This document shows, piece after piece, positions 9,211 through 35,951 of a DNA stretch of 64,000 bases (positions within the stretch are counted from its first letter, which is position 1; each line of letters opens with the position of its first letter). This DNA comes from Elusimicrobia bacterium RIFOXYA2_FULL_39_19 (lineage in GTDB: Bacteria; Elusimicrobiota; Endomicrobiia; CG1-02-37-114; XYA2-FULL-39-19). The position numbers and the translations under genes were made by a program. The stretch covers positions 1 to 64,000 of the forward strand of contig MGVC01000010.1 of the NCBI GenBank assembly GCA_001800285.1, given 5' to 3'. The notes beneath the pieces are model-generated. The model saw only the letters and a list, made by a program, of their open reading frames with translations, was not told the origin of the DNA and searched no databases.

Positions 9211-10615
9211 AATCAGCCGGTTTATCTTCTTGTTTGTTTTACTTTACTGCGTCTGTCAGATACCGATTGCTGCCTATCAGCAGGTTTCCTGTGTAATGCA
9301 CATTCATTCCGTTTTCAGCGCCAACGGCAGGCAGACGCTTGAACAAATAGCTGAAAATGCAAAAAATAGCGGCATAAATGTAATCATCCCTGCTGATCAT
9401 GATATCCAGGAATTTGAATACGGCATTTGGCCCTTTTCTCGGCTGATTAAAAAAACAATAATCAACAATTCAATTTTGTATATGGGCGGCAGTAAATACC
9501 TCAACGAAATACACAGGGTTCAGGAAAAATACCCTGATATGGTTATCATTCCGGGAGTTGAATCAGCCCCCTATTACTACTGGACCGGCAATCCTCTAAA
9601 AAAATCCCTTACCATGAATAACTGGCACAAACACATCCTGCTTATCGGATTGAATGACCCGCGCTCTTACGATAATCTGCCGGTACTTGGAAATCAAAAA
9701 TCAAAAACCTTTAATCCCATACTGTTGTGGCCGGCAGTTTTTATAATTGCCGGATTTTTTTTAATTAGAAACAGAACTTTACTTATACTTTTTCAGCTGG
9801 CGGCCTTACTGCTGCTGCTTTATAACTATCCTTACAATTCATATATGTTTAATCAGTATAATGGAGACCAGAAAGAACTGCCCTATCAAAATATAATAAA
9901 CTATACCGCTAATGCCGGCGGGCTTACTTTTTGGGCACACCCGGAAGCAAGAAACTGGAAAAATTCAGAAAACTTTAACGGCGTTTCAATTAAAACAAAA
10001 CCCTACCCGGAATCTATACTTGATACTTTCGGTTATACAGGATTTTCATACTTTTGGGAAGGAACAGATATAATCGGCAAACCCGAAGGTTTCTGGGACA
10101 CAGCCCTTACGCAGTACTGCAAAGGCACAAGAAAATCACCTGTTTGGGCCACGGCAGAGCTTGATTATATTGAAGACGGCCTGCGCAATAACTGGCTTAA
10201 CCTTAACAAAAATATTCTTTACGTAGAAAAACTTGATAAAGAAAATGTTATGGACTCTTTAAGAAAAGGCCGGTTTTTCATTACCTCAAAACAAAAACCC
10301 GATTCCCCTGACCCGGTCATGAACGATTTTGCAGTTTCTTCTGATAAAGGCAGCGCAATTTTTGGCGAAACCCTAAACTATTCAGGGTCTGTAAAGATTT
10401 CTTTCAATCTCAATACAACTGCCCGGATGAAAACAAACACAACGATTAGGCTGATTGAAAACGGCAGAATTGTTCAGGAATTCAATAAAAAAATACCGCT
10501 GAAATTTGAATATATTTTTACTCCATCAACTGACAGGTCTTACTGCCGCTTTGAAATAGATTTTGACTGCGGTGTAAAACTTGTTAGCAACCCCGTTTTT
10601 TTATATAATAATTAA
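9197..10615 (+). CDS. Membrane-anchored PHP-domain metallohydrolase-like protein
   Basis: The 472-residue protein has an N-terminal signal or anchor helix (residues 8-26). A PHP domain follows, with metal-ligand motifs H35-x-H37, D67-H68, GVES, and a late W-A-H248. PHP domains hydrolyse phosphoesters using a trinuclear metal site; this one resembles the CehA/McbA-like branch. Two adjacent hydrophobic helices (about 178-212) interrupt the catalytic domain between the E and the last H motif. The C-terminal ~100 residues look like a beta-sandwich. The active site is probably extracytoplasmic. Its place among glycan genes suggests removal of phosphate from a lipid or glycan carrier, but the substrate is unproven. 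Confidence 0.7.
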   Translation: MKIYKISRFIFLFVLLYCVCQIPIAAYQQVSCVMHIHSVFSANGRQTLEQIAENAKNSGINVIIPADHDIQEFEYGIWPFSRLIKKTIINNSILYMGGSKYLNEIHRVQEKYPDMVIIPGVESAPYYYWTGNPLKKSLTMNNWHKHILLIGLNDPRSYDNLPVLGNQKSKTFNPILLWPAVFIIAGFFLIRNRTLLILFQLAALLLLLYNYPYNSYMFNQYNGDQKELPYQNIINYTANAGGLTFWAHPEARNWKNSENFNGVSIKTKPYPESILDTFGYTGFSYFWEGTDIIGKPEGFWDTALTQYCKGTRKSPVWATAELDYIEDGLRNNWLNLNKNILYVEKLDKENVMDSLRKGRFFITSKQKPDSPDPVMNDFAVSSDKGSAIFGETLNYSGSVKISFNLNTTARMKTNTTIRLIENGRIVQEFNKKIPLKFEYIFTPSTDRSYCRFEIDFDCGVKLVSNPVFLYNN

Positions 10616-10616
10616 A

Positions 10617-11294
10617 ATGATTATGTCAGTACATCAGGCGCAGTACATTCCCTGGCTTGGATATTTCAATAAAATAGCAAAAAGCGACATTTTCGTAGTC
10701 CTTGACAACGTGCAGTACAAAAAAAGAGAATACCAAAACAGAAACCGCATAAGGACCAAGCAGGGCTGGCTCTGGCTTACGGTCCCGGTCATAACCAAAG
10801 AAAAGTTTTTTCAAAAAATCAACGAAGTGGAAATTGACAATACTGCCGACTGGAAAGAAAAACATTTTGAAACTATAAAAGTAAATTACAGCCACGCAAA
10901 ATTCTATAAAGATTACATAGGCTTTTTTGAAAACTGTTTTCAGAAAGACTGGCAGAAACTGCAGGATTTAAATATGGAAATAATTAATTTTGCCCTGCAA
11001 GTATTGGATATTAAAACACCCTTGAAACTTGAGTCCGAACTTCAGATTGAGGGCACATCAACTCAGCGTATTGTCAATATCTGTAAAAAGCTTTCTGCAA
11101 ATACTTATCTTTCCGGGTCCGGTGGAAAAGACTATATGAATGAAAGCCTGTTTCAGAATGAAAATATCGGCCTTGAATATCAGAGCTTCACCCATCCTCG
11201 TTACGAACAGGTTTATCCGGGCTTTGAACCCTATATGTCGATTATTGACCTTATTTTAAACCACGGGCAAGAAAGCAGAAACTTTATTATATAA
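10617..11294 (+). CDS. WbqC-like family protein
   Basis: The protein belongs to the WbqC-like family, shown by the N-terminal signature HQAQYIPWLGYFNKI, then DNVQYKKREYQNRNRI, and a later YLSGSGGKDY. Family members lie in O-antigen and EPS loci and are thought to act on amino-sugar or acyl modifications, but no activity is firmly established. I chose the ATG at 10617, just after the previous stop at 10613-10615. A longer reading from 10581 would add a hydrophobic leader that the family lacks. ATG 10623 is equally possible. No clear Shine-Dalgarno is seen, which fits translational coupling. Confidence 0.82.
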   Translation: MIMSVHQAQYIPWLGYFNKIAKSDIFVVLDNVQYKKREYQNRNRIRTKQGWLWLTVPVITKEKFFQKINEVEIDNTADWKEKHFETIKVNYSHAKFYKDYIGFFENCFQKDWQKLQDLNMEIINFALQVLDIKTPLKLESELQIEGTSTQRIVNICKKLSANTYLSGSGGKDYMNESLFQNENIGLEYQSFTHPRYEQVYPGFEPYMSIIDLILNHGQESRNFII

Positions 11295-15696: not shown

Positions 15697-17111
15697 AAAA
15701 TACAGAAAAACAGAAAATGAATGAAGCGCCCGCGCAGGAAAGAATTAACAATTTTTCTGAGGTTGCTTTAGGTTACAATGAAGAACAGGCAAGAATAGAA
15801 GCTCAAAGATGCATACAGTGCAAAAAACCGTCCTGCGTAGCAGGCTGCCCTGTTGAAATAAATATCCCTAAATTCATAAAAGAAATAGCATCCGGAGAAT
15901 ACAGCAAATCCATAAGCACACTGAAAGAAAAAAGCAATCTGCCTGCTGTCTGCGGAAGAGTCTGCCCCCAGGAAACTCAGTGTGAATTAAAATGCATACT
16001 TAGCAAAAAAGGCAATCCCGTAGCCATAGGCTACCTGGAAAGGTTTGCTGCCGACTATGAAATGAAAAATAAAAAAGACAGTTTGCCGGTTATTTCTGTA
16101 AAAAAAACACAGGGCCATAAAGTTGCAATTATCGGATCCGGCCCTGCCGGATTAACCTGCGCAGGAGACCTGGCAAGAGCAGGAGCAAGTGTTACCATTT
16201 TTGAAGCCTTGCATAAATCAGGAGGCGTATTAAGCTACGGCATTCCTCCTTTCAGGCTTCCAAGAAATATACTTAACGATGAACTAAACTACATAAAATC
16301 CCTTGGGGTAGAAATTCAAAACAACATAATCATAGGAAAAACTTTTTCCATTGAAGACTTATTCGCCGCAGGCTATAAGGCTGTTTTCATCGGTGCCGGC
16401 GCAGGATTACCGGTTTTCCCGGGCCTGCCGGGTGAAAATCTCTGCGGTATTTACTCAGCCAATGAGTTTTTAACCAGAATTAACCTTATGTCTGCAGACA
16501 AATTCCCTGAATCTGATACACCCCTAAATATCGGCAGCAAAACAGTTGTTATTGGCGGAGGCAACACCGCCATGGACTCCGCCCGCTGTGCCATAAGAAT
16601 AATCAAAACCCGTTTTCCTGACATAAAGCCGGAAGTAACTATTATTTACCGCAGGACCGAAAGTGAAATGCCGGCAAGAAAAGAAGAAATTGAACACGCA
16701 AAACAGGAAGGCATTAACTTTGAATTCCTAACCCAACCGGTTGAATTTATAAATAACGGAGACGGGTTTTTAAGCGCAGTTAAATGTTTAAAATGCGAAC
16801 TTGGAGCACCGGATTCATCCGGCAGAAGAAAACCCGTCCCCTTAAAAAATTCAGAATTCATCATTGAAACCAATACCGCAGTTCTTGCCCTCGGTTTAAA
16901 ACCAAACCCTCTTGTGCCGCAATCTTTGAAAGGCCTTAAAACTGATGATGAAGGTAACGTTATTGTGAACCCGGAAACAGCCCAAACAAGTATTGATAAC
17001 GTATATGCAGGCGGAGATATTATCGGCGGTGAAGGTACAGTGATAGAAGCAATGGGGATGGGTAAAAAAGCCGCAAAATCTATAATAAATGTATATTTAA
17101 ATACCCATTGA
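15693..17111 (+). CDS. nfnB: NfnB-like large subunit / glutamate-synthase small-subunit family
   Basis: The 472-residue flavoprotein binds two [4Fe-4S] clusters near its N-terminus (C40, C43, C48, C52 and C87, C91, C97, C101). It has two dinucleotide folds: FAD at IIGSGPAGLTCAG and NADP at VIGGGNTAMDSARCAIR. Homologues are annotated as glutamate synthase subunit GltA or NfnB. The directly coupled nfnA-like partner, and no glutamate-synthase large subunit in view, make NfnB the better call. It would supply NADPH from ferredoxin and NADH in the cytoplasm. Confidence 0.85.
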   Translation: MKNTEKQKMNEAPAQERINNFSEVALGYNEEQARIEAQRCIQCKKPSCVAGCPVEINIPKFIKEIASGEYSKSISTLKEKSNLPAVCGRVCPQETQCELKCILSKKGNPVAIGYLERFAADYEMKNKKDSLPVISVKKTQGHKVAIIGSGPAGLTCAGDLARAGASVTIFEALHKSGGVLSYGIPPFRLPRNILNDELNYIKSLGVEIQNNIIIGKTFSIEDLFAAGYKAVFIGAGAGLPVFPGLPGENLCGIYSANEFLTRINLMSADKFPESDTPLNIGSKTVVIGGGNTAMDSARCAIRIIKTRFPDIKPEVTIIYRRTESEMPARKEEIEHAKQEGINFEFLTQPVEFINNGDGFLSAVKCLKCELGAPDSSGRRKPVPLKNSEFIIETNTAVLALGLKPNPLVPQSLKGLKTDDEGNVIVNPETAQTSIDNVYAGGDIIGGEGTVIEAMGMGKKAAKSIINVYLNTH

Positions 17112-17136
17112 CTTAACAATGAATGCATCCTATAAC
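17108..17136 (+). promoter_or_regulatory. Promoter for the pilin genes, predicted leaderless
   Basis: TTGACT (17108-17113) and TATAAC (17131-17136) are spaced by exactly 17 nt. The -35 overlaps the nfnB stop codon. Transcription would start near 17143, only a few bases before the ATG at 17146, leaving essentially no 5' leader. This argues against the in-frame ATG at 17119, which would not be on the transcript. Confidence 0.6.
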
Positions 17137-17145
17137 CATATTAGA

Positions 17146-19755
17146 ATGAAAAGCAAACTTTTTGTAAACAGCAAAAAATCACAATTGGGATTCTCCCTTG
17201 TTGAAGTAATGGTCATAGTTGTTGTTATGAGCATTTTCTTCGTTACTCTTGGGGGTATTTTCTATTCAATATCAAAAGGATCATTTCTTTCCAAATCAAG
17301 AACTATTGCCACAAATCTTGGACAGGAAAAAATAGAATATTTAAAAAACTATAACTATTTCCGGCTTATGGTCACCCCTCAGGAAGATTATACTTTATAC
17401 GGCCACGATAACACCTATTATCCCCCGGAAACAATGGTTATAGGAGACATTACATTTACTAGAGAAACGTTAGTTAGAAAAGTACGCGAAACAGGCACGG
17501 GGTCTGACAGAAAAATTGAAGAAGTCCCGTCTGATTATAACGATATGGGCCTAAAAAAAGTCAGAGTAAACATTTCCTGGATTGAAAATGGTAACCTAAA
17601 AAGATATGAATTCTCAAATTTAAGAGAAAACCCAAACAGGCTTCCTTTAAGCGGTAAAATATACGGAACAGTAACATCAACAGGCACACCTTTTTCAATA
17701 AACGGAGTTACAGTCCAGGTTATTGAAAACATGAACTATGAAACTGTAACAAACGGCAGCGGTTATTATGAAATAGCAATCGCTACCGGCACCTGGCATA
17801 CAAAAGCCACTAAATACGGTTACTGGGAAAAGATATCTCCTGATTTAGTGGTAACAGATGGCGGCTCAGTAGAATACTCCCCTCAATTGCAGGGAAGACT
17901 ATTAGGAAGAGTTACCGGATATGTATGCATGAACACAAACTTAGTTATTGGCCAAGTGGTTGCCAGCACAGTATCCCCCGCAGGTTTTAATCAGGAATTT
18001 ATTGAACTCTTTAACCCAACAACCTTTCAAATTCAATTTGGTATCGGTATGAATGCCGGATTTTATAAACTTAAATATGCAGAAAGAACAGTCGGAATCC
18101 CGGGGCCTAATGATTTTGTACTCCATACAATAGTATTAAATCCATTTTTATACCTGGACCCTGTTGTTCCTTCCTATGGTTATCTTTTAATAGCAAACAC
18201 CTCGCCTGTAATAATAAACGGCGTTTCAAAAAATGCTGATTTGTTAATGTATGATGACACAGCCGGCGACCCAACTTACCCGGATCCTGCATGGGGGTTT
18301 ATTGAAGAAAACGAATCCGGAGGTTTATGCCTTACAGATGATTCTGATAATAATGTTGACCGTATTGGCTGGAAAGATAACGGCGGTTTGAACCAGGCTC
18401 CGTTAATAGCTACTGAAAGCACTCCATTTGATTTTACAGGAGTATTTTCTCCTAACTATTTAATAAGGCGTTCTCATTCAAAACCTCCTTTAGGCAGCTG
18501 GTTTGCAGGAGCACCGGCCACAGACACTGATAACAATGACTATGATTTTGGGTATCAAACAAAAATTACTGCTAGTTATTTTCAAAATTCATCCTCACCT
18601 GTATCTATTCCAATTTATGGGAAGCCGGCCGTTGGAGCCGTAGTTACCTGCAATGATGGCCTTTCTTCTTCTGTTATTGCCCAGGGAATAGGAACCCCTG
18701 CAAAAGGAGCCTATTACGAAATTATAACCGCAGCAACAGGAACCTGGGTTGTATCAATTTCAAGCGGTAATTATTACATAGAAATATCCAGTGTAACTGT
18801 TTTAGAAGGACAAGCAACATCCATTCCCAACGCTTCAACAGACCCCAGCTTTACAGCTACTACAATTCCAAATTACAGGACAGCGCTTCTTAATCAAATA
18901 ACTTATGAAGGAATAATAGCAGGCAGAGTAGTAAACAACTCAGGAACTGCTCTGCAAAACATTAAAATTGATGCAGGCGGTTATGTTGGATGGACAGATA
19001 ATAACGGCAGATTCATGGTAAGAGTCACAACCAACACTACTGTTACAATAAACCCTGAAAATTTCAATAAAAATTATACCAGCTATACAACCACATATAC
19101 AGTTAACGTTACAGTAGGCCAAATAACAAATATTGATGAAGTCACATTGCTTTCCGGAGGACAGATTACCGGGTGGGTTACTTCAAACGGAACCGATAAT
19201 TTACCTGATATCGCACTGCTTGCTACCTGCGGTTCTTTAAGCTACACAACAGTATCAGAAAGTAACGGACAATTTATTTTAACCGATTTACCCGTAGGAA
19301 CCTATAATGTAAGCCCCCAGATTGATTCCATGGAATCATCTTCCCCCACCGCTAAATCTGTCGCTGTCGGTCAGGGACAGGTAGTCTGGTCTTCAACATT
19401 TGTGATCACCGGTGCTTTTGGTAAATTTGCGGGGACAGTGTACAAAGATACTGAAATAATAAAGACAGGAGTTCTTGTAATTGCTACATTAGAAACAATC
19501 AGCTCAGACCCTCCTGATTTTGATTATGACAGAAGAAACGGCACAAACATTTATTATGCGGCAGTCAGCAAAGATGACGGGACCTATGAAATATCAGTCA
19601 GAGGAACTGCAACTGTTTATAATATTTACGGCTGGTATACAGAAATATCCGGAGACGGCACATCAACTGTCAAACGCTCAAAAACCGGAACAGCATCCGC
19701 GTCAGTAACAACTACTGTAAATTTCGGGCCGGGGAGCGGAAATGATTCCTGGTAA
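17146..19755 (+). CDS. Large type IV prepilin-like protein with lamin-tail and carboxypeptidase-regulatory-like domains
   Basis: The N-terminus is a prepilin leader and helix: a basic stretch, then cleavage before F in LGFSLVEVMVIVVVMSIFF, with the conserved glutamate at +5. Classical pilins have 150-200 residues; this one has 869. After the pilin head come CarboxypepD_reg-like beta-sandwiches (from ~190), a lamin-tail-like domain (about 280-480, 'EFIELFNPT...YGYLLIAN'), then three or four more small beta domains (VTSNGTDNLPDIALLA; YKDTEIIKTGVLVI). The start at 17146 gives a typical short leader and suits the promoter; 17119 is the longer alternative. It is probably a tip or minor pseudopilin with an adhesin-like extension. 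Confidence 0.8.
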   Translation: MKSKLFVNSKKSQLGFSLVEVMVIVVVMSIFFVTLGGIFYSISKGSFLSKSRTIATNLGQEKIEYLKNYNYFRLMVTPQEDYTLYGHDNTYYPPETMVIGDITFTRETLVRKVRETGTGSDRKIEEVPSDYNDMGLKKVRVNISWIENGNLKRYEFSNLRENPNRLPLSGKIYGTVTSTGTPFSINGVTVQVIENMNYETVTNGSGYYEIAIATGTWHTKATKYGYWEKISPDLVVTDGGSVEYSPQLQGRLLGRVTGYVCMNTNLVIGQVVASTVSPAGFNQEFIELFNPTTFQIQFGIGMNAGFYKLKYAERTVGIPGPNDFVLHTIVLNPFLYLDPVVPSYGYLLIANTSPVIINGVSKNADLLMYDDTAGDPTYPDPAWGFIEENESGGLCLTDDSDNNVDRIGWKDNGGLNQAPLIATESTPFDFTGVFSPNYLIRRSHSKPPLGSWFAGAPATDTDNNDYDFGYQTKITASYFQNSSSPVSIPIYGKPAVGAVVTCNDGLSSSVIAQGIGTPAKGAYYEIITAATGTWVVSISSGNYYIEISSVTVLEGQATSIPNASTDPSFTATTIPNYRTALLNQITYEGIIAGRVVNNSGTALQNIKIDAGGYVGWTDNNGRFMVRVTTNTTVTINPENFNKNYTSYTTTYTVNVTVGQITNIDEVTLLSGGQITGWVTSNGTDNLPDIALLATCGSLSYTTVSESNGQFILTDLPVGTYNVSPQIDSMESSSPTAKSVAVGQGQVVWSSTFVITGAFGKFAGTVYKDTEIIKTGVLVIATLETISSDPPDFDYDRRNGTNIYYAAVSKDDGTYEISVRGTATVYNIYGWYTEISGDGTSTVKRSKTGTASASVTTTVNFGPGSGNDSW

Positions 19756-21806: not shown

Positions 21807-21842
21807 AAGGCGGTTTCTTTGACAATACCGCCTTTTTTTTAT
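21807..21842 (+). terminator. Rho-independent terminator after the pilin operon
   Basis: AAGGCGGT (21807-21814) pairs perfectly with ACCGCCTT (21827-21834) across a 12-nt loop, and a run of T follows (21833-21840). This is the clearest intrinsic terminator in the window. The loop and T-run also hold the promoter of the next gene. Confidence 0.85.
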
Positions 21843-21847
21843 AGAAT
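21819..21847 (+). promoter_or_regulatory. Promoter for tmk embedded in the terminator, predicted leaderless
   Basis: A perfect TTGACA (21819-21824) lies in the terminator loop. After 17 nt comes TAGAAT (21842-21847), one base off consensus. Transcription would begin at about 21853-21855, directly before the ATG at 21856, and no Shine-Dalgarno is present, so the mRNA should be leaderless. Confidence 0.62.
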
Positions 21848-21855
21848 TATTATCG

Positions 21856-22482
21856 ATGAAACATGGTCTATTTATCACTTTTGAGGGGCCGGACGGCTCC
21901 GGCAAATCCACTCACGCAGAAAAGCTTAAACAATGGTTCAAAAACAAAGGCTTTTCTGTAATTCTTACCAGAGAACCCGGCGGAACCAGGCTGGCTGAAT
22001 CTATAAGAAAGCTTCTTTTAAATTCAGAAAATTCGGTTTCCCCCATTACAGAACTTCTGCTTTATGCCGCCAGCCGCGCCCAGCATACCCAGGAACTTAT
22101 TTTACCGTCGTTAAAACAGGGCAAAATCATTATTAGCGACAGATATTATGATTCCACCGTTGCCTATCAGCATTATGGCAGAGGGCTGGACCTTAAAACA
22201 ATCAAAGAATTAAATACAATTGCTTCCGGCGGACTGACGCCAGACCTTACAATCCTGATAGATCTGGAAACAAAAAAAAGCCTGGGAAGACTGAAAAATA
22301 CAAGAAAAAAAGACCGCATAGAAAATGAAAACACAGCTTTTCACAGAAAAATTCGAAACGGTTATCTGGCTTTGGCAAAAAACGAGCCAAGACGCATAAA
22401 AATAGTCAAAAGTAACAATGAAATGTCAGCCACTTTTGAAAGTATTCTATCTGTTGTAAAGGATTTCATAAAAAAACAATGA
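21856..22482 (+). CDS. tmk: Thymidylate kinase
   Basis: The 208-residue enzyme phosphorylates dTMP to dTDP for DNA synthesis. The P-loop is G11-PDGSGKS-18, the dTMP-binding DR motif is in SDRYYDSTVAYQ, and the LID region carries RLKNTRKKDRIE. Length and motifs are normal. The next gene starts inside its stop codon (ATGA), the common tmk-holB pairing. Confidence 0.95.
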   Translation: MKHGLFITFEGPDGSGKSTHAEKLKQWFKNKGFSVILTREPGGTRLAESIRKLLLNSENSVSPITELLLYAASRAQHTQELILPSLKQGKIIISDRYYDSTVAYQHYGRGLDLKTIKELNTIASGGLTPDLTILIDLETKKSLGRLKNTRKKDRIENENTAFHRKIRNGYLALAKNEPRRIKIVKSNNEMSATFESILSVVKDFIKKQ

Positions 22483-30225: not shown

Positions 30226-31713
30226 TCAACGCTTTACTATCGCCACAAGCACGCTTAGGATAACAATAATAGACATTAAAGACATAGCCAGATTTACAGT
30301 TTTGTTTGATGCTGACTCTCTTTGCATGCCCGCCAATTTAGGCCTTTTTGAATTACTGAAAACAGTAGTTTTATAGACAATTTTTTCTATTCTGGTGAGA
30401 TTTCCTGCCTTGTCTTTTACATTAATAACAATTATATTTCTGCCTTGTCTTGCCGTAACAGCTGTTACAAAACCGCCGTTTTCAACTATCTGCACCACCC
30501 GGTCATTAACCTGCAGGTAACTACCCGGCTCCGTTTTACCTTCAACATAAATAAAATCATCAGGAGTCTGCTCTTCATCAGCGGGCTTAGTTACTTCCAG
30601 CACAGGGGCCGTGTTATCAATAGAAAATACCTTAGGCTGAGAAAACCTGCTTTCAAAATCCAGATCATCTATATAACTTACTCTGTAATAATACTTTCCG
30701 TCTACCAGTTTCATTTGCGAAAAATCAAAATTCATTTTATCTTTAATTTCGCTTATTTCATTTACAATTATAGTCTTAAACTCATAATCTTTGGCTATCT
30801 GAAGATGATATTTTTTTATTCCGGCTGAAAGTATTTTGGACTGGTCATCCTTGCCTTTTTTTGTGTCCGGAGTTTTTAAATTAAAGTTTAAAGAATCTTT
30901 GGCAAAATTTTCATCTAAATCTGTTTTCTTTCCTGTTCCTAGATTAAATTCCGGCAATGGTGGAAGCTGTCTGGGCAAAGACGGCGGAGCCATATACTTA
31001 ATTTCTGTCCCAAAACCCTTGGTCAGCGTAACGGTTTTATCCTGGGCAGTTACATCAACTACACCTTCATAAACTTCAACTAATGTGGTTTTATCCGGTT
31101 TTACTCTTGTTTTAAAGTCTGCCTCTTTTGACCTCGGCTGAATTTTCGGGTCAATGACAATGCTTTCTGATAATACTCTGGCACGCGAAGCTCTTACGGC
31201 GCCGCTGAATATTTCCACTTCTTCCCTTTTCTTTTCAGGCCTCAAAATAATGAATGAATTTTCATCAACACGTATAATTTCCCCGGTTAAAAACTTTACA
31301 TTTGCTTCAGAATTACTCATAGTTCTTATGCCGTCGTCATTAAACAGCTCCATATTTAAACGGGCAGGATCCCAGTTTACATTATCTCTTTTTCTGAATT
31401 TTACGTCATTTGTCATATAAATCAGTGTAGCAGGTCTTAAAGATTCTTTTACCAATATTATAGGAATTCTTAATACCATGCCCGGTAAAATTACGTTCGG
31501 GTCACTGGAAGCAATTTTGTTATACTTCAATATTTCCGGCCAGGCCTGAGGGTCTTTCAAATAAAAGTTGGCAACACTCCACATGGTATCGCCATCTTTT
31601 ACTTTAACTTCCTGAAAAACTACTTCCTTTGTAGCTTCCTGTGCATAAACCTGGAAAACACCAAAAGCTGTAGTATGTATCATAATTATTAGAAGTAAGA
31701 CTTTTTTCATCAT
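30226..31713 (-). CDS. LysM and FecR domain envelope protein
   Basis: The 495-residue protein has a signal peptide (KVLLLIIMIHTTAFGVFQVYA) and a LysM domain (about 35-85, KDGDTMWSVANFY...LPGMVLRIP) that should bind peptidoglycan. A FecR-like domain follows (about 130-245), then beta-sandwich segments (VTKPADEEQTPDDFIYVEGKTEPGS in parts). A C-terminal membrane helix (residues ~473-492) ends the protein. This layout, LysM-FecR-Ig with a C-terminal anchor, occurs beside signal-transduction genes in several phyla. It overlaps the sensor kinase stop codon by 4 nt and is probably co-transcribed with it, perhaps as its cell-wall sensor. Confidence 0.8.
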   Translation of the reverse strand: MMKKVLLLIIMIHTTAFGVFQVYAQEATKEVVFQEVKVKDGDTMWSVANFYLKDPQAWPEILKYNKIASSDPNVILPGMVLRIPIILVKESLRPATLIYMTNDVKFRKRDNVNWDPARLNMELFNDDGIRTMSNSEANVKFLTGEIIRVDENSFIILRPEKKREEVEIFSGAVRASRARVLSESIVIDPKIQPRSKEADFKTRVKPDKTTLVEVYEGVVDVTAQDKTVTLTKGFGTEIKYMAPPSLPRQLPPLPEFNLGTGKKTDLDENFAKDSLNFNLKTPDTKKGKDDQSKILSAGIKKYHLQIAKDYEFKTIIVNEISEIKDKMNFDFSQMKLVDGKYYYRVSYIDDLDFESRFSQPKVFSIDNTAPVLEVTKPADEEQTPDDFIYVEGKTEPGSYLQVNDRVVQIVENGGFVTAVTARQGRNIIVINVKDKAGNLTRIEKIVYKTTVFSNSKRPKLAGMQRESASNKTVNLAMSLMSIIVILSVLVAIVKR

Positions 31714-33851
31714 ATATCCGTCACATTACTGCTGGTAAGATTTTTTGGAATATAGAAGTTAAATGCTGACCCTTCTTTAAGTTTTGATTCAACCCAGATT
31801 TTACCTTTGTGGGATTCTACAATATACCTGCATATGGTTAGCCCCAGCCCGGTACCACCCTTCTTTTGGCCCGTAACCTGCTGGAATTTATCAAATATTT
31901 TATCAATATAATCCATGGGGATACCTTCACCCGTATCTTTGACCTGGTATTCAAATTTGTCGGGATGATCGGTTATAGTTATGGTTATGCTTCCTTTTTC
32001 CGGGGTAAATTTCAGCGCGTTGCCTACAAGATTATTTATTACTCTTTCAATAAGCTGCGGATCTGCATTTAATACCGTAGGAAATGTAATTTCCGGGATT
32101 ATCATGTTTATTTCTTTTTTCTGGATCTGCGGCTGGAGAAGTTCTACTACCCTACGTGTTAAATCAAGCAGTTGTGTTTCTCCTAACTGAAGCGACATTC
32201 TGCCTGATTCCAGTTTTGCCAGGTCAAGAATATCATTGATAAGAGACATCAGCCTGAGGGAGGCCCTGTCCATAATTTCAACCATTTTCTTCTGCTGTTC
32301 GTTAAGCGGCCCGCCAATGCCGTCGCTGAGGAATTTCAGGAAACCTCTTATGGAGGTCATGGGGTTTCTCAGGTCATGCGTAATAGAATGCATGAAATCA
32401 TCTTTCATTCTGTCTATTTCTTTTTCAAGAGTTATATCTCTTACTACTGTTACAACTCCCAACTGTTCACCTTTTACCGTAGTTACAGGTTTTGTGGTTG
32501 TTTTAAAGAAACGCATAAGGTTGGAAGTAGATAAATCGATTTCCTTTGAAATAATGGTATCTTCCTCTTCATACTTTTTAATTACTTCTGAAAATACGCC
32601 GGCCAGAGACTCTTCTTTCAGCAGGCTCCATAGAACTTTGCCTTCAATATTCTGGTCTTCTATGGAAAGCATGTTTCTGGCCTGCTTGTTTGCCAGCAGG
32701 ATTTTGCCTTCAAAATCCGTCATTATTATGCCGTCGGCAATAGAAAATATTACGGCTTCTGTCTTGGTTTTTTCCGCTACAATTTTATCAACCTGCATTT
32801 CATCATATCTTTTTAACTCGTCAGTCATGACATTAAATGTTGAAATGAGGTCGTTTATTTCATCATTGGTTTTAATATTAACTCTTTGGGAAAAATCCTG
32901 TTTGGCTATCCTGCTGGCCACTTTGGTAAGAGCTAATATGGGTTTTGTCATGCTTCTTGAAATCACAATAGCTATCAGAATGCTCAGTAACACGCTTCCG
33001 ATTATCATTAAAAACGCCTGGCGCTGCATTCTGTAACTTGAATAGTAGGCTTCATTTTTCTGTTGTTCCACAATTACAGACCATTTGAAATCCTTAATGG
33101 GTGCATAAGCGCCTATCATAACCTGTTTTGTAAGAGGGTTATAATATTCACTGGAACCGATGGATACAGCATTCATGGCCTGGCTAATTATGGATATGGA
33201 AGTCTGAGGTTTAAGGACTAATTCTTTGTCTTTATGTGCTATAATTTGCCCTTTTGCATTTATCAGAAATGCATAACCGGTTTTTCCAAGCCTTAACTCA
33301 ATCAGCTCGTTCCACAGTTCCTCAAAACTTACTATCATGAGCACGGTAATGTTTTTTCCAATATCAAAATACATGTTTACAAACGGTTTATTATCTATGA
33401 AATATATGGCGCTTATTGCCTTTGCAAGTTTTTGCTCCTTTAGCAGTTTAAATGTTTCATCATCTTTTAATGAAAGAAGCTTTGCATCCTTATCAATAAG
33501 GAGATTAAAAACCTTTACTTTTTCGGCACCAGTTTTATCCAGCAAAGATATGGATGAAATACTTTTATTTGAATCTATAATGGTTTTCAGTATTACATCC
33601 CTGAGCTGGTAATCATTGACGGCAAGAATCTGGGTGACGTACGGGATTTCATTCTGGATAATTGAAAGGCGGTAATTTACTTTTTCTGCAAAGGAACCTG
33701 CAAGCTGGGTATGCAATTCAAGCATTGAGGTTTGAAGGGCATCTTTGTTTATGTTAATAGTCCTGATGCCTACCACAACGAGAGGGCCTACGCTAAGGAT
33801 TATTAAAACAGCAAAGAATTTAATAAAAAGTGGTATTTTAATATCTTTCAT
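31710..33851 (-). CDS. Sensor histidine kinase (Cache-HAMP-PAS-HisKA-HATPase)
   Basis: The 713-residue kinase has a membrane helix (10-28), a periplasmic Cache-type sensor domain (about 40-275) and a second helix (~280-300). HAMP, a PAS domain (about 365-480) and the HisKA motif with phospho-acceptor H492 (SITHDLRNP) follow. The ATPase domain has N-box NNLVGNALKF, G1 DTGEGIP and G2 GGTGLGL. It senses a periplasmic ligand and should phosphorylate one or more of the orphan receivers encoded convergently at 26633-30194. Its promoter predicts a leaderless mRNA. Confidence 0.92.
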   Translation of the reverse strand: MKDIKIPLFIKFFAVLIILSVGPLVVVGIRTININKDALQTSMLELHTQLAGSFAEKVNYRLSIIQNEIPYVTQILAVNDYQLRDVILKTIIDSNKSISSISLLDKTGAEKVKVFNLLIDKDAKLLSLKDDETFKLLKEQKLAKAISAIYFIDNKPFVNMYFDIGKNITVLMIVSFEELWNELIELRLGKTGYAFLINAKGQIIAHKDKELVLKPQTSISIISQAMNAVSIGSSEYYNPLTKQVMIGAYAPIKDFKWSVIVEQQKNEAYYSSYRMQRQAFLMIIGSVLLSILIAIVISRSMTKPILALTKVASRIAKQDFSQRVNIKTNDEINDLISTFNVMTDELKRYDEMQVDKIVAEKTKTEAVIFSIADGIIMTDFEGKILLANKQARNMLSIEDQNIEGKVLWSLLKEESLAGVFSEVIKKYEEEDTIISKEIDLSTSNLMRFFKTTTKPVTTVKGEQLGVVTVVRDITLEKEIDRMKDDFMHSITHDLRNPMTSIRGFLKFLSDGIGGPLNEQQKKMVEIMDRASLRLMSLINDILDLAKLESGRMSLQLGETQLLDLTRRVVELLQPQIQKKEINMIIPEITFPTVLNADPQLIERVINNLVGNALKFTPEKGSITITITDHPDKFEYQVKDTGEGIPMDYIDKIFDKFQQVTGQKKGGTGLGLTICRYIVESHKGKIWVESKLKEGSAFNFYIPKNLTSSNVTDI

Positions 33852-33858
33852 TAGCTAC

Positions 33859-33887
33859 ATTATATTTGAACTTTTAATTAAAATCAA
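33859..33887 (-). promoter_or_regulatory. Promoter for the sensor kinase, predicted leaderless
   Basis: On the minus strand TTGATT (33887-33882) is followed after 17 nt by a perfect TATAAT (33864-33859). Only 7 nt separate the -10 from the ATG at 33851, so transcription should start at or next to the start codon. No Shine-Dalgarno is present. The N-terminal membrane helix begins at residue ~8, so the protein cannot start much further downstream. Confidence 0.65.
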
Positions 33888-33958: not shown

Positions 33959-33987
33959 TTGAATTTAGCCTCCTTATTTTGTATTTA
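33959..33987 (+). promoter_or_regulatory. Candidate promoter for the O-antigen ligase gene, predicted leaderless
   Basis: TTGAAT (33959-33964), 17 nt, then TATTTA (33982-33987). The -10 is weaker than in the other promoters here. The spacing to the second in-frame ATG (33996) is 8 nt, as in the other leaderless candidates, while the first ATG (33990) would lie upstream of the transcript start. Confidence 0.45.
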
Positions 33988-33995
33988 ATATGAAG

Positions 33996-35951
33996 ATGAA
34001 AAAACAAAAAAATAAACTGCATATTCAGAAAACAACACCACAAGAACCTGCAAAACTGCCGTTTTCAGATTATATTCCGGCAGTAGTACTCGCTCTTACC
34101 TTAGTTCTAGCGCCCATCCTGCCCGATGTCCAGATTACCCGGCCCAAATTAATGGTAATTGAGCTGGGTATATTTACCGCCATTCTTGTTTTTATTATTA
34201 AAATCTTAAATTCAGGAACAATCCGCATACGGCTTAACCCTCTTAATGTCCCCATTCTGATGTACATAATTTATATCTTTACCTGTTATATGTTCAGCGA
34301 TAATAAATCAGTGGCATTCAACGAATTTAAAAGAATGCTTCTTTGTTCCTCTATATTTTTTCTATCCGCAAACATTATCAGTCCCGACGAATCTCTTTGC
34401 CGCAAACAAAGAAACCTGGTTTTGGCCGGTTTATTAATAGGGTCTTCCATAGCGGTGATTTATGGAATTATGCAGCATTTCGGAAACATAAGATTTTTCG
34501 GAGTTGTTTTTAGCGTCCCGCAAATGGGACGCTGCGCATCAACTTTTGGAAACCCTATTTTTTTTGCTGCACACCTGATTATATTTATTCCTATTGTATC
34601 AGGATTGCTTTTAAACTCTTTTAGAAAAGACCTGAAATCCAGTTTTAGCTTTAATAGCTACCGCTTTTTTTTGATAATAATTATTTTCTCGGCTTTAATT
34701 GCGCTTTACTACACGCAGACAAGAGCGGCCTGGATTGCCTTTGCATTCTCAGCGGTACTTTTCGGCATAATCAATATAAAATCAAAGAAACTCAAACTTA
34801 CTTTTCTCATAATTGCCGGTATTTCCATAGCCGGGTTTACCTTACTTACCTGGCAGGTATGGCTCAGGCACCAGGCCCATCCCTTAATATGGAAAGACAC
34901 CCTGCGTTTATGGCTTAGCAGCCCCTTATTCGGCACCGGGCCTGGTACTTTCCATATTAATTTTCCTGCCTTTGCCTCTCCGGAACTGCTAAAAATCTGG
35001 CCCCAGTCGCAGCAAATAATAAACGATGCCCATAATGAGTATGTTCAGATACTCGCGGAAACCGGCATTATCGGCTTTGCGATTTTTTTTGCCATAATAT
35101 TTTTCTTTTTCAAATACGGCTTTGATGTTTACAAACAGAAACCCCGGAATAAATATATGCTTTCAGGGCTTTTATGCAGTGCGGCAGCAATCCTGGCACA
35201 GAATGTTTTCTCTGTTGATATGCGCTTCATAATTTCTGCTTTTTACCTTTTTCTGGTAATCGGCCTACTCTGTTCTTTCGGCAACACTTTTTTCACTTAT
35301 AATTTTCAATTAAAAAAAGTCTATTCTCTAATTATTACTGTAATAATTCTGGCTGTTTTCGGAGTTATCGGTATTGAAAAAAATAACCGGATCCATATTT
35401 GTTCCTTTATTCACTATGATTATAAAGAAAATAAATTAAACTTTAAACCTTTGTTTGAAGGAGCCGGACTGCTGCCCCAAATCCTTAAACCCTATCTTGT
35501 CCAACAGTCATTGAACGAAAAACCTGATTTTTTTGACGAAAAAATACTTGAGCCTGTAAAAACCATAGAAGGGCTTGAAAAAATTTCTGAGCAACACCCC
35601 GGCGAACCGAAGGTTTATGAAAAACTCGGCTGGGCTTACTCAAAAGAAAGAATGTTCGGTAAAGCCATAGAAAACTATGAAAAAGCAATAAAACTCAATC
35701 CATCAAATCCCGGCCCTTATAACAATATCGGCAACATTTATTTTCTTTCCCAAAACAGGCTCAAAGCTATTGAATATTATCAGCGATCCCTTTCTGTAAA
35801 CCCTGCCCAAATTGACGCCCACAGCAATATCGGTATTCTTTATTATTACGAAGGAAAACTTAAGGATGCCGCGGAACATTTCAACATTGTGCTGAAAACC
35901 AATCCCAATGACGAAAAAGCTATTTATTACCTTAAAAGAATGAGAGAATGA
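33996..35951 (+). CDS. O-antigen ligase/polymerase-like membrane protein with TPR repeats
   Basis: The polytopic membrane protein of ~650 residues has about twelve hydrophobic segments. The Wzy_C-type periplasmic loop contains TQTRAAWIAF, and a GTGPGTF...DAHNEYVQILAETG motif is typical of WaaL/PglL-like ligases. Three TPR units follow at ~538-650 (KAIENYEKAIKLNP, KAIEYYQRSLSVNP, DAAEHFNIVLKTNP). It should move lipid-linked glycan to an acceptor in the periplasm. An ATG at 33990 is also in frame, two codons earlier. It overlaps the next gene by 4 nt. A second such ligase is at 48472. Confidence 0.83.
   Translation: MKKQKNKLHIQKTTPQEPAKLPFSDYIPAVVLALTLVLAPILPDVQITRPKLMVIELGIFTAILVFIIKILNSGTIRIRLNPLNVPILMYIIYIFTCYMFSDNKSVAFNEFKRMLLCSSIFFLSANIISPDESLCRKQRNLVLAGLLIGSSIAVIYGIMQHFGNIRFFGVVFSVPQMGRCASTFGNPIFFAAHLIIFIPIVSGLLLNSFRKDLKSSFSFNSYRFFLIIIIFSALIALYYTQTRAAWIAFAFSAVLFGIINIKSKKLKLTFLIIAGISIAGFTLLTWQVWLRHQAHPLIWKDTLRLWLSSPLFGTGPGTFHINFPAFASPELLKIWPQSQQIINDAHNEYVQILAETGIIGFAIFFAIIFFFFKYGFDVYKQKPRNKYMLSGLLCSAAAILAQNVFSVDMRFIISAFYLFLVIGLLCSFGNTFFTYNFQLKKVYSLIITVIILAVFGVIGIEKNNRIHICSFIHYDYKENKLNFKPLFEGAGLLPQILKPYLVQQSLNEKPDFFDEKILEPVKTIEGLEKISEQHPGEPKVYEKLGWAYSKERMFGKAIENYEKAIKLNPSNPGPYNNIGNIYFLSQNRLKAIEYYQRSLSVNPAQIDAHSNIGILYYYEGKLKDAAEHFNIVLKTNPNDEKAIYYLKRMRE

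What the first reader, a model, noticed from the sequence alone, without database searches (positions are those of the whole stretch)
17108..17148. A promoter grammar that predicts leaderless mRNAs
Four promoter-proximal genes share TTGAnn-N17-TAnnnn with the -10 box ending 7-9 nt before the start codon: pilin (17131-17136 to ATG 17146), tmk (21842-21847 to ATG 21856), sensor kinase (33859 to ATG 33851) and O-antigen ligase (33987 to ATG 33996). None has a Shine-Dalgarno, while genes inside operons often do. Leaderless transcripts are well known in Actinobacteria and Deinococcus; finding a consistent set in this diderm window is notable.
Basis: partly seen in the sequence, partly recalled or inferred. 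Interest (0 to 1): 0.62.

Follow-up and report, generated by a model that had tools for sequence, protein, structure and literature searches.

The report
Minority leaderless genes in Elusimicrobiota
About one in fifteen of the genes that begin a transcription unit in this uncultured Elusimicrobiota bacterium has its promoter so close to the start codon that the messenger RNA should begin at or within a few bases of it, a known style of gene start that appears not to have been described for this phylum and is kept at some genes across related species.

Summary
Three (tmk, sensor kinase, O-antigen ligase) are supported by relatives that keep a -10 box 6-12 nt before ATG without a Shine-Dalgarno (SD). 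The pilin is weak: poor -10, alternative in-frame ATG, 7 nt behind the upstream gene, SD-led in the nearest relative. A fifth case, wbqC at 10617, was missed and is among the best conserved. Genome-wide (784 kb sampled, 248 promoter-proximal genes) the peak is real but small: 16 genes (6.5%) against 1.5 in shuffles, with an empty valley just upstream. A sister genus gives 6/85 against 0.6. The 16S anti-SD is intact. Best reading: an SD-using Elusimicrobiota genome with a minority of leaderless or near-leaderless sigma-70-type genes, as Zheng et al. 2011 found at low levels in many phyla. New member of a known kind; 5' ends remain unmeasured.

The parts
21819..21847 (+). tmk promoter, TTGACA-N17-TAGAAT, -10 ends 8 nt before ATG 21856
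   Evidence: sequence; 11/12 consensus match; in orthologs 12 of 28 readable tmk genes have a promoter with -10 ending 5-12 nt before the start against 1.45 in shuffles (maximum 6), and only 1 of 28 has an SD of 5 nt or more
21856..22482 (+). tmk, thymidylate kinase; start fixed by the conserved N-terminus MKxGxFITFEGPDGSGKS
   Evidence: Pfam PF02223 E=1.3e-55; ortholog alignment
33859..33887 (-). sensor kinase promoter, TTGATT-N17-TATAAT, -10 ends 7 nt before ATG 33851
   Evidence: sequence; relatives: G002 TTGCTT-N17-TATAAT-N10-ATG, G003 TTGATT-N17-TATAAT-N6-ATG
31710..33851 (-). dCache-HAMP-PAS-HisKA-HATPase sensor kinase
   Evidence: Pfam; orthologs align from residue 1-4
33959..33987 (+). 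O-antigen ligase promoter, TTGAAT-N17-TATTTA, -10 ends 8 nt before ATG 33996
   Evidence: sequence; relatives G001 TTGCTT-N17-TATTTT-N7-ATG and G004 TTGCAA-N17-TATCCT-N9-ATG; weak -10, not among the hits of the matrix scan
33990..35951 (+). O-antigen ligase/TPR protein; ATG 33990 or, if leaderless, ATG 33996
   Evidence: Pfam PF04932 Wzy_C E=9.1e-18
   Evidence: matrix scan; conserved with -10 ending 5-8 nt before ATG in G001, G003 and G004, SD-led in G002
10617..11294 (+). WbqC-like protein; ATG 1 nt after the stop of the upstream gene
   Evidence: Pfam PF08889 E=1.9e-81
17108..17136 (+). putative pilin-gene promoter, TTGACT-N17-TATAAC; weakest of the set, -35 overlaps the stop codon of the upstream gene
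   Evidence: sequence; not conserved: ortholog in G002 has TATATA 19 nt before ATG and an SD (GGGGAG); not listed by the scan
17119..19755 (+). type IV pilin-like protein (N_methyl) with carboxypeptidase-regulatory-like domain; in-frame ATGs at 17119 and 17146
   Evidence: Pfam

Best explanation
The window lies in an Elusimicrobiota MAG whose ribosomes use ordinary Shine-Dalgarno initiation (intact anti-SD), but in which a minority of transcription units, about 6% of promoter-proximal genes, have a sigma-70-type promoter whose -10 box ends 6-9 nt before ATG. RNA polymerase normally starts about 7 nt after the -10 box, so these mRNAs should begin at the A of ATG or 1-3 nt before it; 70S ribosomes or 30S subunits loaded with fMet-tRNA and IF2 would then recognise the 5'-terminal AUG without an SD. 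tmk, the sensor kinase, the O-antigen ligase and wbqC belong to this class; the pilin is uncertain. Shown here: promoter-like sequences, their spacing to the start codon, absence of SD, genome-wide excess and conservation. Inferred: the actual 5' ends and the mode of ribosome recruitment.
For: (1) Positional excess: 16 of 248 promoter-proximal genes have a promoter with -10 end at d=6-9, dinucleotide shuffles mean 1.3-1.5 (maximum 4 of 60 and 7 of 40 shuffles), at a stricter score 13 against 0.37; the neighbouring distances d=10-13 hold none. Sister genus G001: 6/85 against 0.6, operon-internal 0/153; pooled first versus internal 22/333 against 4/365, Fisher p = 1e-4. (2) Independent -35 test: among 53 -10-like hexamers at d=6-9 of first genes, chosen without regard to a -35, 17 have at least 4/6 of TTGACA at a spacer of exactly 17, against about 2 at other spacers; genes that are not first show no such peak. 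(3) Conservation with turnover of surrounding bases: tmk in 12 of 28 orthologs from several families; wbqC in four of five species, a gene that by its N-terminal sequence looks like a D-alanine-D-alanine ligase in four of four readable, a PHP gene in three of four; orthologs of candidates 10/19 with a promoter at d=5-12, orthologs of SD-led control genes 1/19. (4) N-termini of tmk and the kinase are conserved from the first residues, so those start codons are right. (5) Anti-SD CCTCCTTTCT present in 16S.
Against: No transcript 5' ends are available. Start codons come from a simple caller written here. Some ortholog distances (10-12 nt in tmk and kinase relatives) would give 3-6 nt leaders rather than none. 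The excess outside the own family is modest (G038 4/68, five other families 0-2 each). The promoter matrix is E. coli-like, not trained on this organism.
Confidence: 0.82

Rival explanations
1. Near-start promoters give short-leadered mRNAs (3-10 nt) translated by non-SD recruitment (S1, AU-rich leader) rather than true leaderless mRNAs.
For: Some orthologs have d=10-12 (kinase in G002 and G038, tmk in L044, L050); the genome encodes a protein with several S1 domains.
Against: In G000 itself the peak is at d=6-9 and d=10-13 is empty, which is the leaderless distance.
Confidence: 0.1
2. A/T-rich upstream composition or an AT-rich non-SD ribosome-binding motif (as in Bacteroidetes) mimics -10 boxes; there is no leaderless transcription.
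For: Upstream regions are 67% A+T; about 40% of genes lack an SD.
Against: Dinucleotide shuffles keep composition and give 1.5 against 16; a -35 hexamer at exactly 17 nt is enriched independently; operon-internal genes, equally A+T-rich upstream, lack most of the signal.
Confidence: 0.04
3. Wrong start codons: the true starts lie downstream behind an SD, and the promoters make ordinary leaders.
For: Possible for the pilin (two ATGs); the N-terminus of the O-antigen ligase is not conserved.
Against: tmk, kinase, wbqC and valS starts are conserved to the first residues in relatives.
Confidence: 0.04

Closest known systems
TA-led (leaderless) bacterial genes of Zheng et al. 2011, BMC Genomics 12:361 (PMC3160421)
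   Same: TANNNT about 12 bp before the start, no SD, a few per cent of genes in an otherwise SD-using genome; same inference of leaderless transcripts
   Different: Elusimicrobia are not named in the main text; here conservation gene by gene among orthologs is shown
GeneMarkS-2 class of bacterial genomes with leaderless transcription alongside SD sites (Lomsadze et al. 2018, as cited in PMC9581028)
   Same: mixed SD plus promoter-at-start signal; 21.6% of bacterial species reported as such
   Different: the paper itself is not held; whether Elusimicrobiota are in that class could not be checked
Leaderless mRNAs of Mycobacterium and Deinococcus
   Same: -10 box 6-9 nt before ATG at promoter-proximal genes
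   Different: there 20-40% of genes, shown by mapping of transcript starts; here about 3% of all called genes, prediction only

Membership tests
Leaderless bacterial genes (TA-led, sigma-70 type) | -10-like TANNNT about 12 bp upstream of the start, in excess over shuffled sequence | tested here: met
   16/248 against 1.5 in shuffles; peak at -12/-13
Leaderless bacterial genes (TA-led, sigma-70 type) | -35 element at 16-18 nt from that -10 | tested here: met
   17 of 53 with spacer 17, about 2 at other spacers
Leaderless bacterial genes (TA-led, sigma-70 type) | no SD before the start codon | tested here: met
   no SD in 15 of the 19 listed genes, three of the other four with only a 4-nt match; tmk orthologs 27/28 without an SD of 5 nt
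Leaderless bacterial genes (TA-led, sigma-70 type) | transcript 5' end at the start codon | not testable with these tools
   no RNA data held
Leaderless bacterial genes (TA-led, sigma-70 type) | translation from a 5'-terminal AUG | not testable with these tools
   needs toeprinting, ribosome profiling or reporter assays
Genome rich in leaderless genes (Deinococcus/Actinobacteria-like) | 20% or more of genes leaderless | tested here: not met
   6.5% of promoter-proximal genes, about 3% of all called genes

The most novel reading that the evidence does not exclude
Leaderless status is selectively maintained at particular genes (tmk, wbqC, a D-Ala-D-Ala-ligase-like gene, a PHP gene) across Elusimicrobiota families, so that these genes respond together to conditions that favour 70S/IF2-type initiation: a translational regulon set by promoter position.
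Probability: 0.2. Interest if true: 0.55.

Novelty: new member of a known kind. Interest (0 to 1): 0.35.

Why it matters
It extends leaderless gene starts to a phylum for which no paper in the searched library reports them, gives specific, conserved test genes, and warns that gene callers that rely on SD will misplace starts here (the mechanical start of wbqC, TTG 10581, is the first half of its -35 box). It does not change the general picture of bacterial initiation.

Tried and rejected
A general promoter-proximal grammar: rejected, 61% of first genes have an SD. A clear -10 peak in every Elusimicrobiota family: not found; G024, G021, G007, G019 and G006 each have 0-2 cases in 37-61 first genes. 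The pilin as a leaderless case: not supported by its orthologs. A T-tract in the spacer as a phylum-specific promoter element: suggestive only (TTTTTT then TANAAT 9 against 3 in reverse order in the own family, 13 against 1 elsewhere, overlapping counts). Two paper searches failed for punctuation; the GeneMarkS-2 paper is not held. A first ortholog script stopped halfway and was completed.

Full report
What the window is. The window is contig C10 of a 3.09 Mb, 86-contig assembly, 97.8% complete, about 38% G+C. The nearest named relatives of its thymidylate kinase are Elusimicrobia bacterium RIFOXYB2_FULL_48_7 (61% identity) and RIFOXYA2_FULL_47_53, so it belongs to Elusimicrobiota. The 16S 3' end reads GGATCACCTCCTTTCT, an intact anti-SD.

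The four motifs. All are present as described. The exact grammar TTGAnn-N17-TAnnnn-N7..9-ATG occurs at 0.17% of all ATGs in 784 kb; in the window it occurs at five ATGs, of which four are the four named gene starts and one (59925, minus strand) lies inside a gene. The four differ in quality. tmk has an 11/12 consensus promoter. The kinase has a perfect TATAAT. The O-antigen ligase has a weak -10, TATTTA, and a second ATG at 33990; if transcription starts 7 nt after the -10, only ATG 33996 is on the transcript. The pilin has TATAAC, its -35 overlaps the stop codon of the upstream gene, and an in-frame ATG at 17119 lies 7 nt after that stop, so read-through from upstream with that start is as likely.

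Genome-wide test. I took stretches of the own genome (784 kb with the window) and of seven relatives, called genes by codon usage and open length, chose starts by codon type, SD and coding potential but never by promoter, and scored an E. coli-type promoter matrix. SD dominates: 61% of 248 promoter-proximal genes and 54% of 212 internal genes. Yet promoter hits at d=6-9 (nt between -10 and start) number 16 against 1.5 in dinucleotide shuffles; d=10-13 has none, and hits resume from about d=17. This two-part distribution is what leaderless plus SD-led genes should give. G001, same family, shows 6/85 against 0.6, and none among 153 internal genes. G038 has 4/68 against 0.6; five other families have 0-2 each.

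Independent check. Taking first genes only by a -10-like hexamer at d=6-9, a TTGACA-like hexamer appears at spacer 17 in 17 of 53, about 2 at other spacers, and no such peak appears in genes that are not first. This argues against an A/T-rich ribosome-binding motif.

Conservation. tmk: 12 of 28 readable orthologs, spread over several families of the class, have a promoter ending 5-12 nt before the start (shuffles 1.45, maximum 6), and only one has an SD of 5 nt or more. The start is fixed by the conserved N-terminus. Kinase: G003 TTGATT-N17-TATAAT-N6-ATG and G002 TATAAT-N10-ATG, while G058 has a promoter some tens of bases upstream. O-antigen ligase: G001 and G004 keep the layout with different -10 boxes. 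Pilin: the G002 ortholog has an SD and d=19. From the genome-wide list, wbqC (window 10617; also G001, G003, G004), a D-alanine-D-alanine-ligase-like gene (four of four readable species; named from its sequence only), a PHP gene (three of four) and valS (with G001, not G003 or G004) keep it; in all, 10 of 19 orthologs of candidates against 1 of 19 orthologs of SD-led controls. The one control hit is aspS in G001, leaderless-type there and SD-led here, a switch of mode between relatives.

Mechanism. RNA polymerase with the housekeeping sigma factor starts about 7 nt after the -10 (established knowledge), which places +1 at, or 1-3 nt before, the A of ATG. Translation would start on the 5'-terminal AUG with 70S or IF2/fMet-tRNA-loaded 30S (established for leaderless mRNAs in E. 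coli; inferred here). Leader lengths of 3-6 nt in some relatives suggest that the exact length is not fixed.

Relation to what is known. Zheng et al. 2011 (PMC3160421) defined TA-led genes by exactly this signal and found them in 207 of 953 bacterial genomes, usually at a few per cent, including several diderm groups. The StartLink paper (PMC9581028; [quoted passage not shown] Full-text searches found no paper reporting leaderless genes in Elusimicrobiota; a 2024 survey (PMC10783764) records the canonical anti-SD CCUCCUUU for Elusimicrobia and Endomicrobia. This is therefore a new member of a known kind.

Noticed in passing
window 21809-21847: An inverted repeat GGCGGT...ACCGCC followed by eight T, looking like a terminator, contains the tmk -35 in its loop, and the T-run forms part of the promoter spacer, so terminator and promoter are interleaved. 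The T-run is kept in many tmk relatives, the hairpin not obviously.
   Followed up: partly
window 10581-10617: The longest ORF of wbqC starts at a TTG that is the first half of its -35 box; the likely true start is ATG 10617.
   Followed up: yes
L240 and L125:8143 (-): aspS is leaderless-type in G001 (TTGAAC-N17-TATAAT-N8-ATG) but SD-led with a GTG start in the own genome: a change of initiation mode between close relatives.
   Followed up: no
upstream regions of several Elusimicrobiota: Spacers with a T-run just before the -10 (for example CCCnTTTTTTT then TATAAT at tmk and wbqC) look over-represented.
   Followed up: partly
L129:2295, L129:7278, L139:4683: Three similar ATPase genes (AAA_14/DUF4143 type; checked by Pfam for L129:7278 only) are all in the leaderless-type list.
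   Followed up: partly
G003:C52:6316-7333: A second, partial tmk-like stretch lies next to tmk in G003.
   Followed up: no
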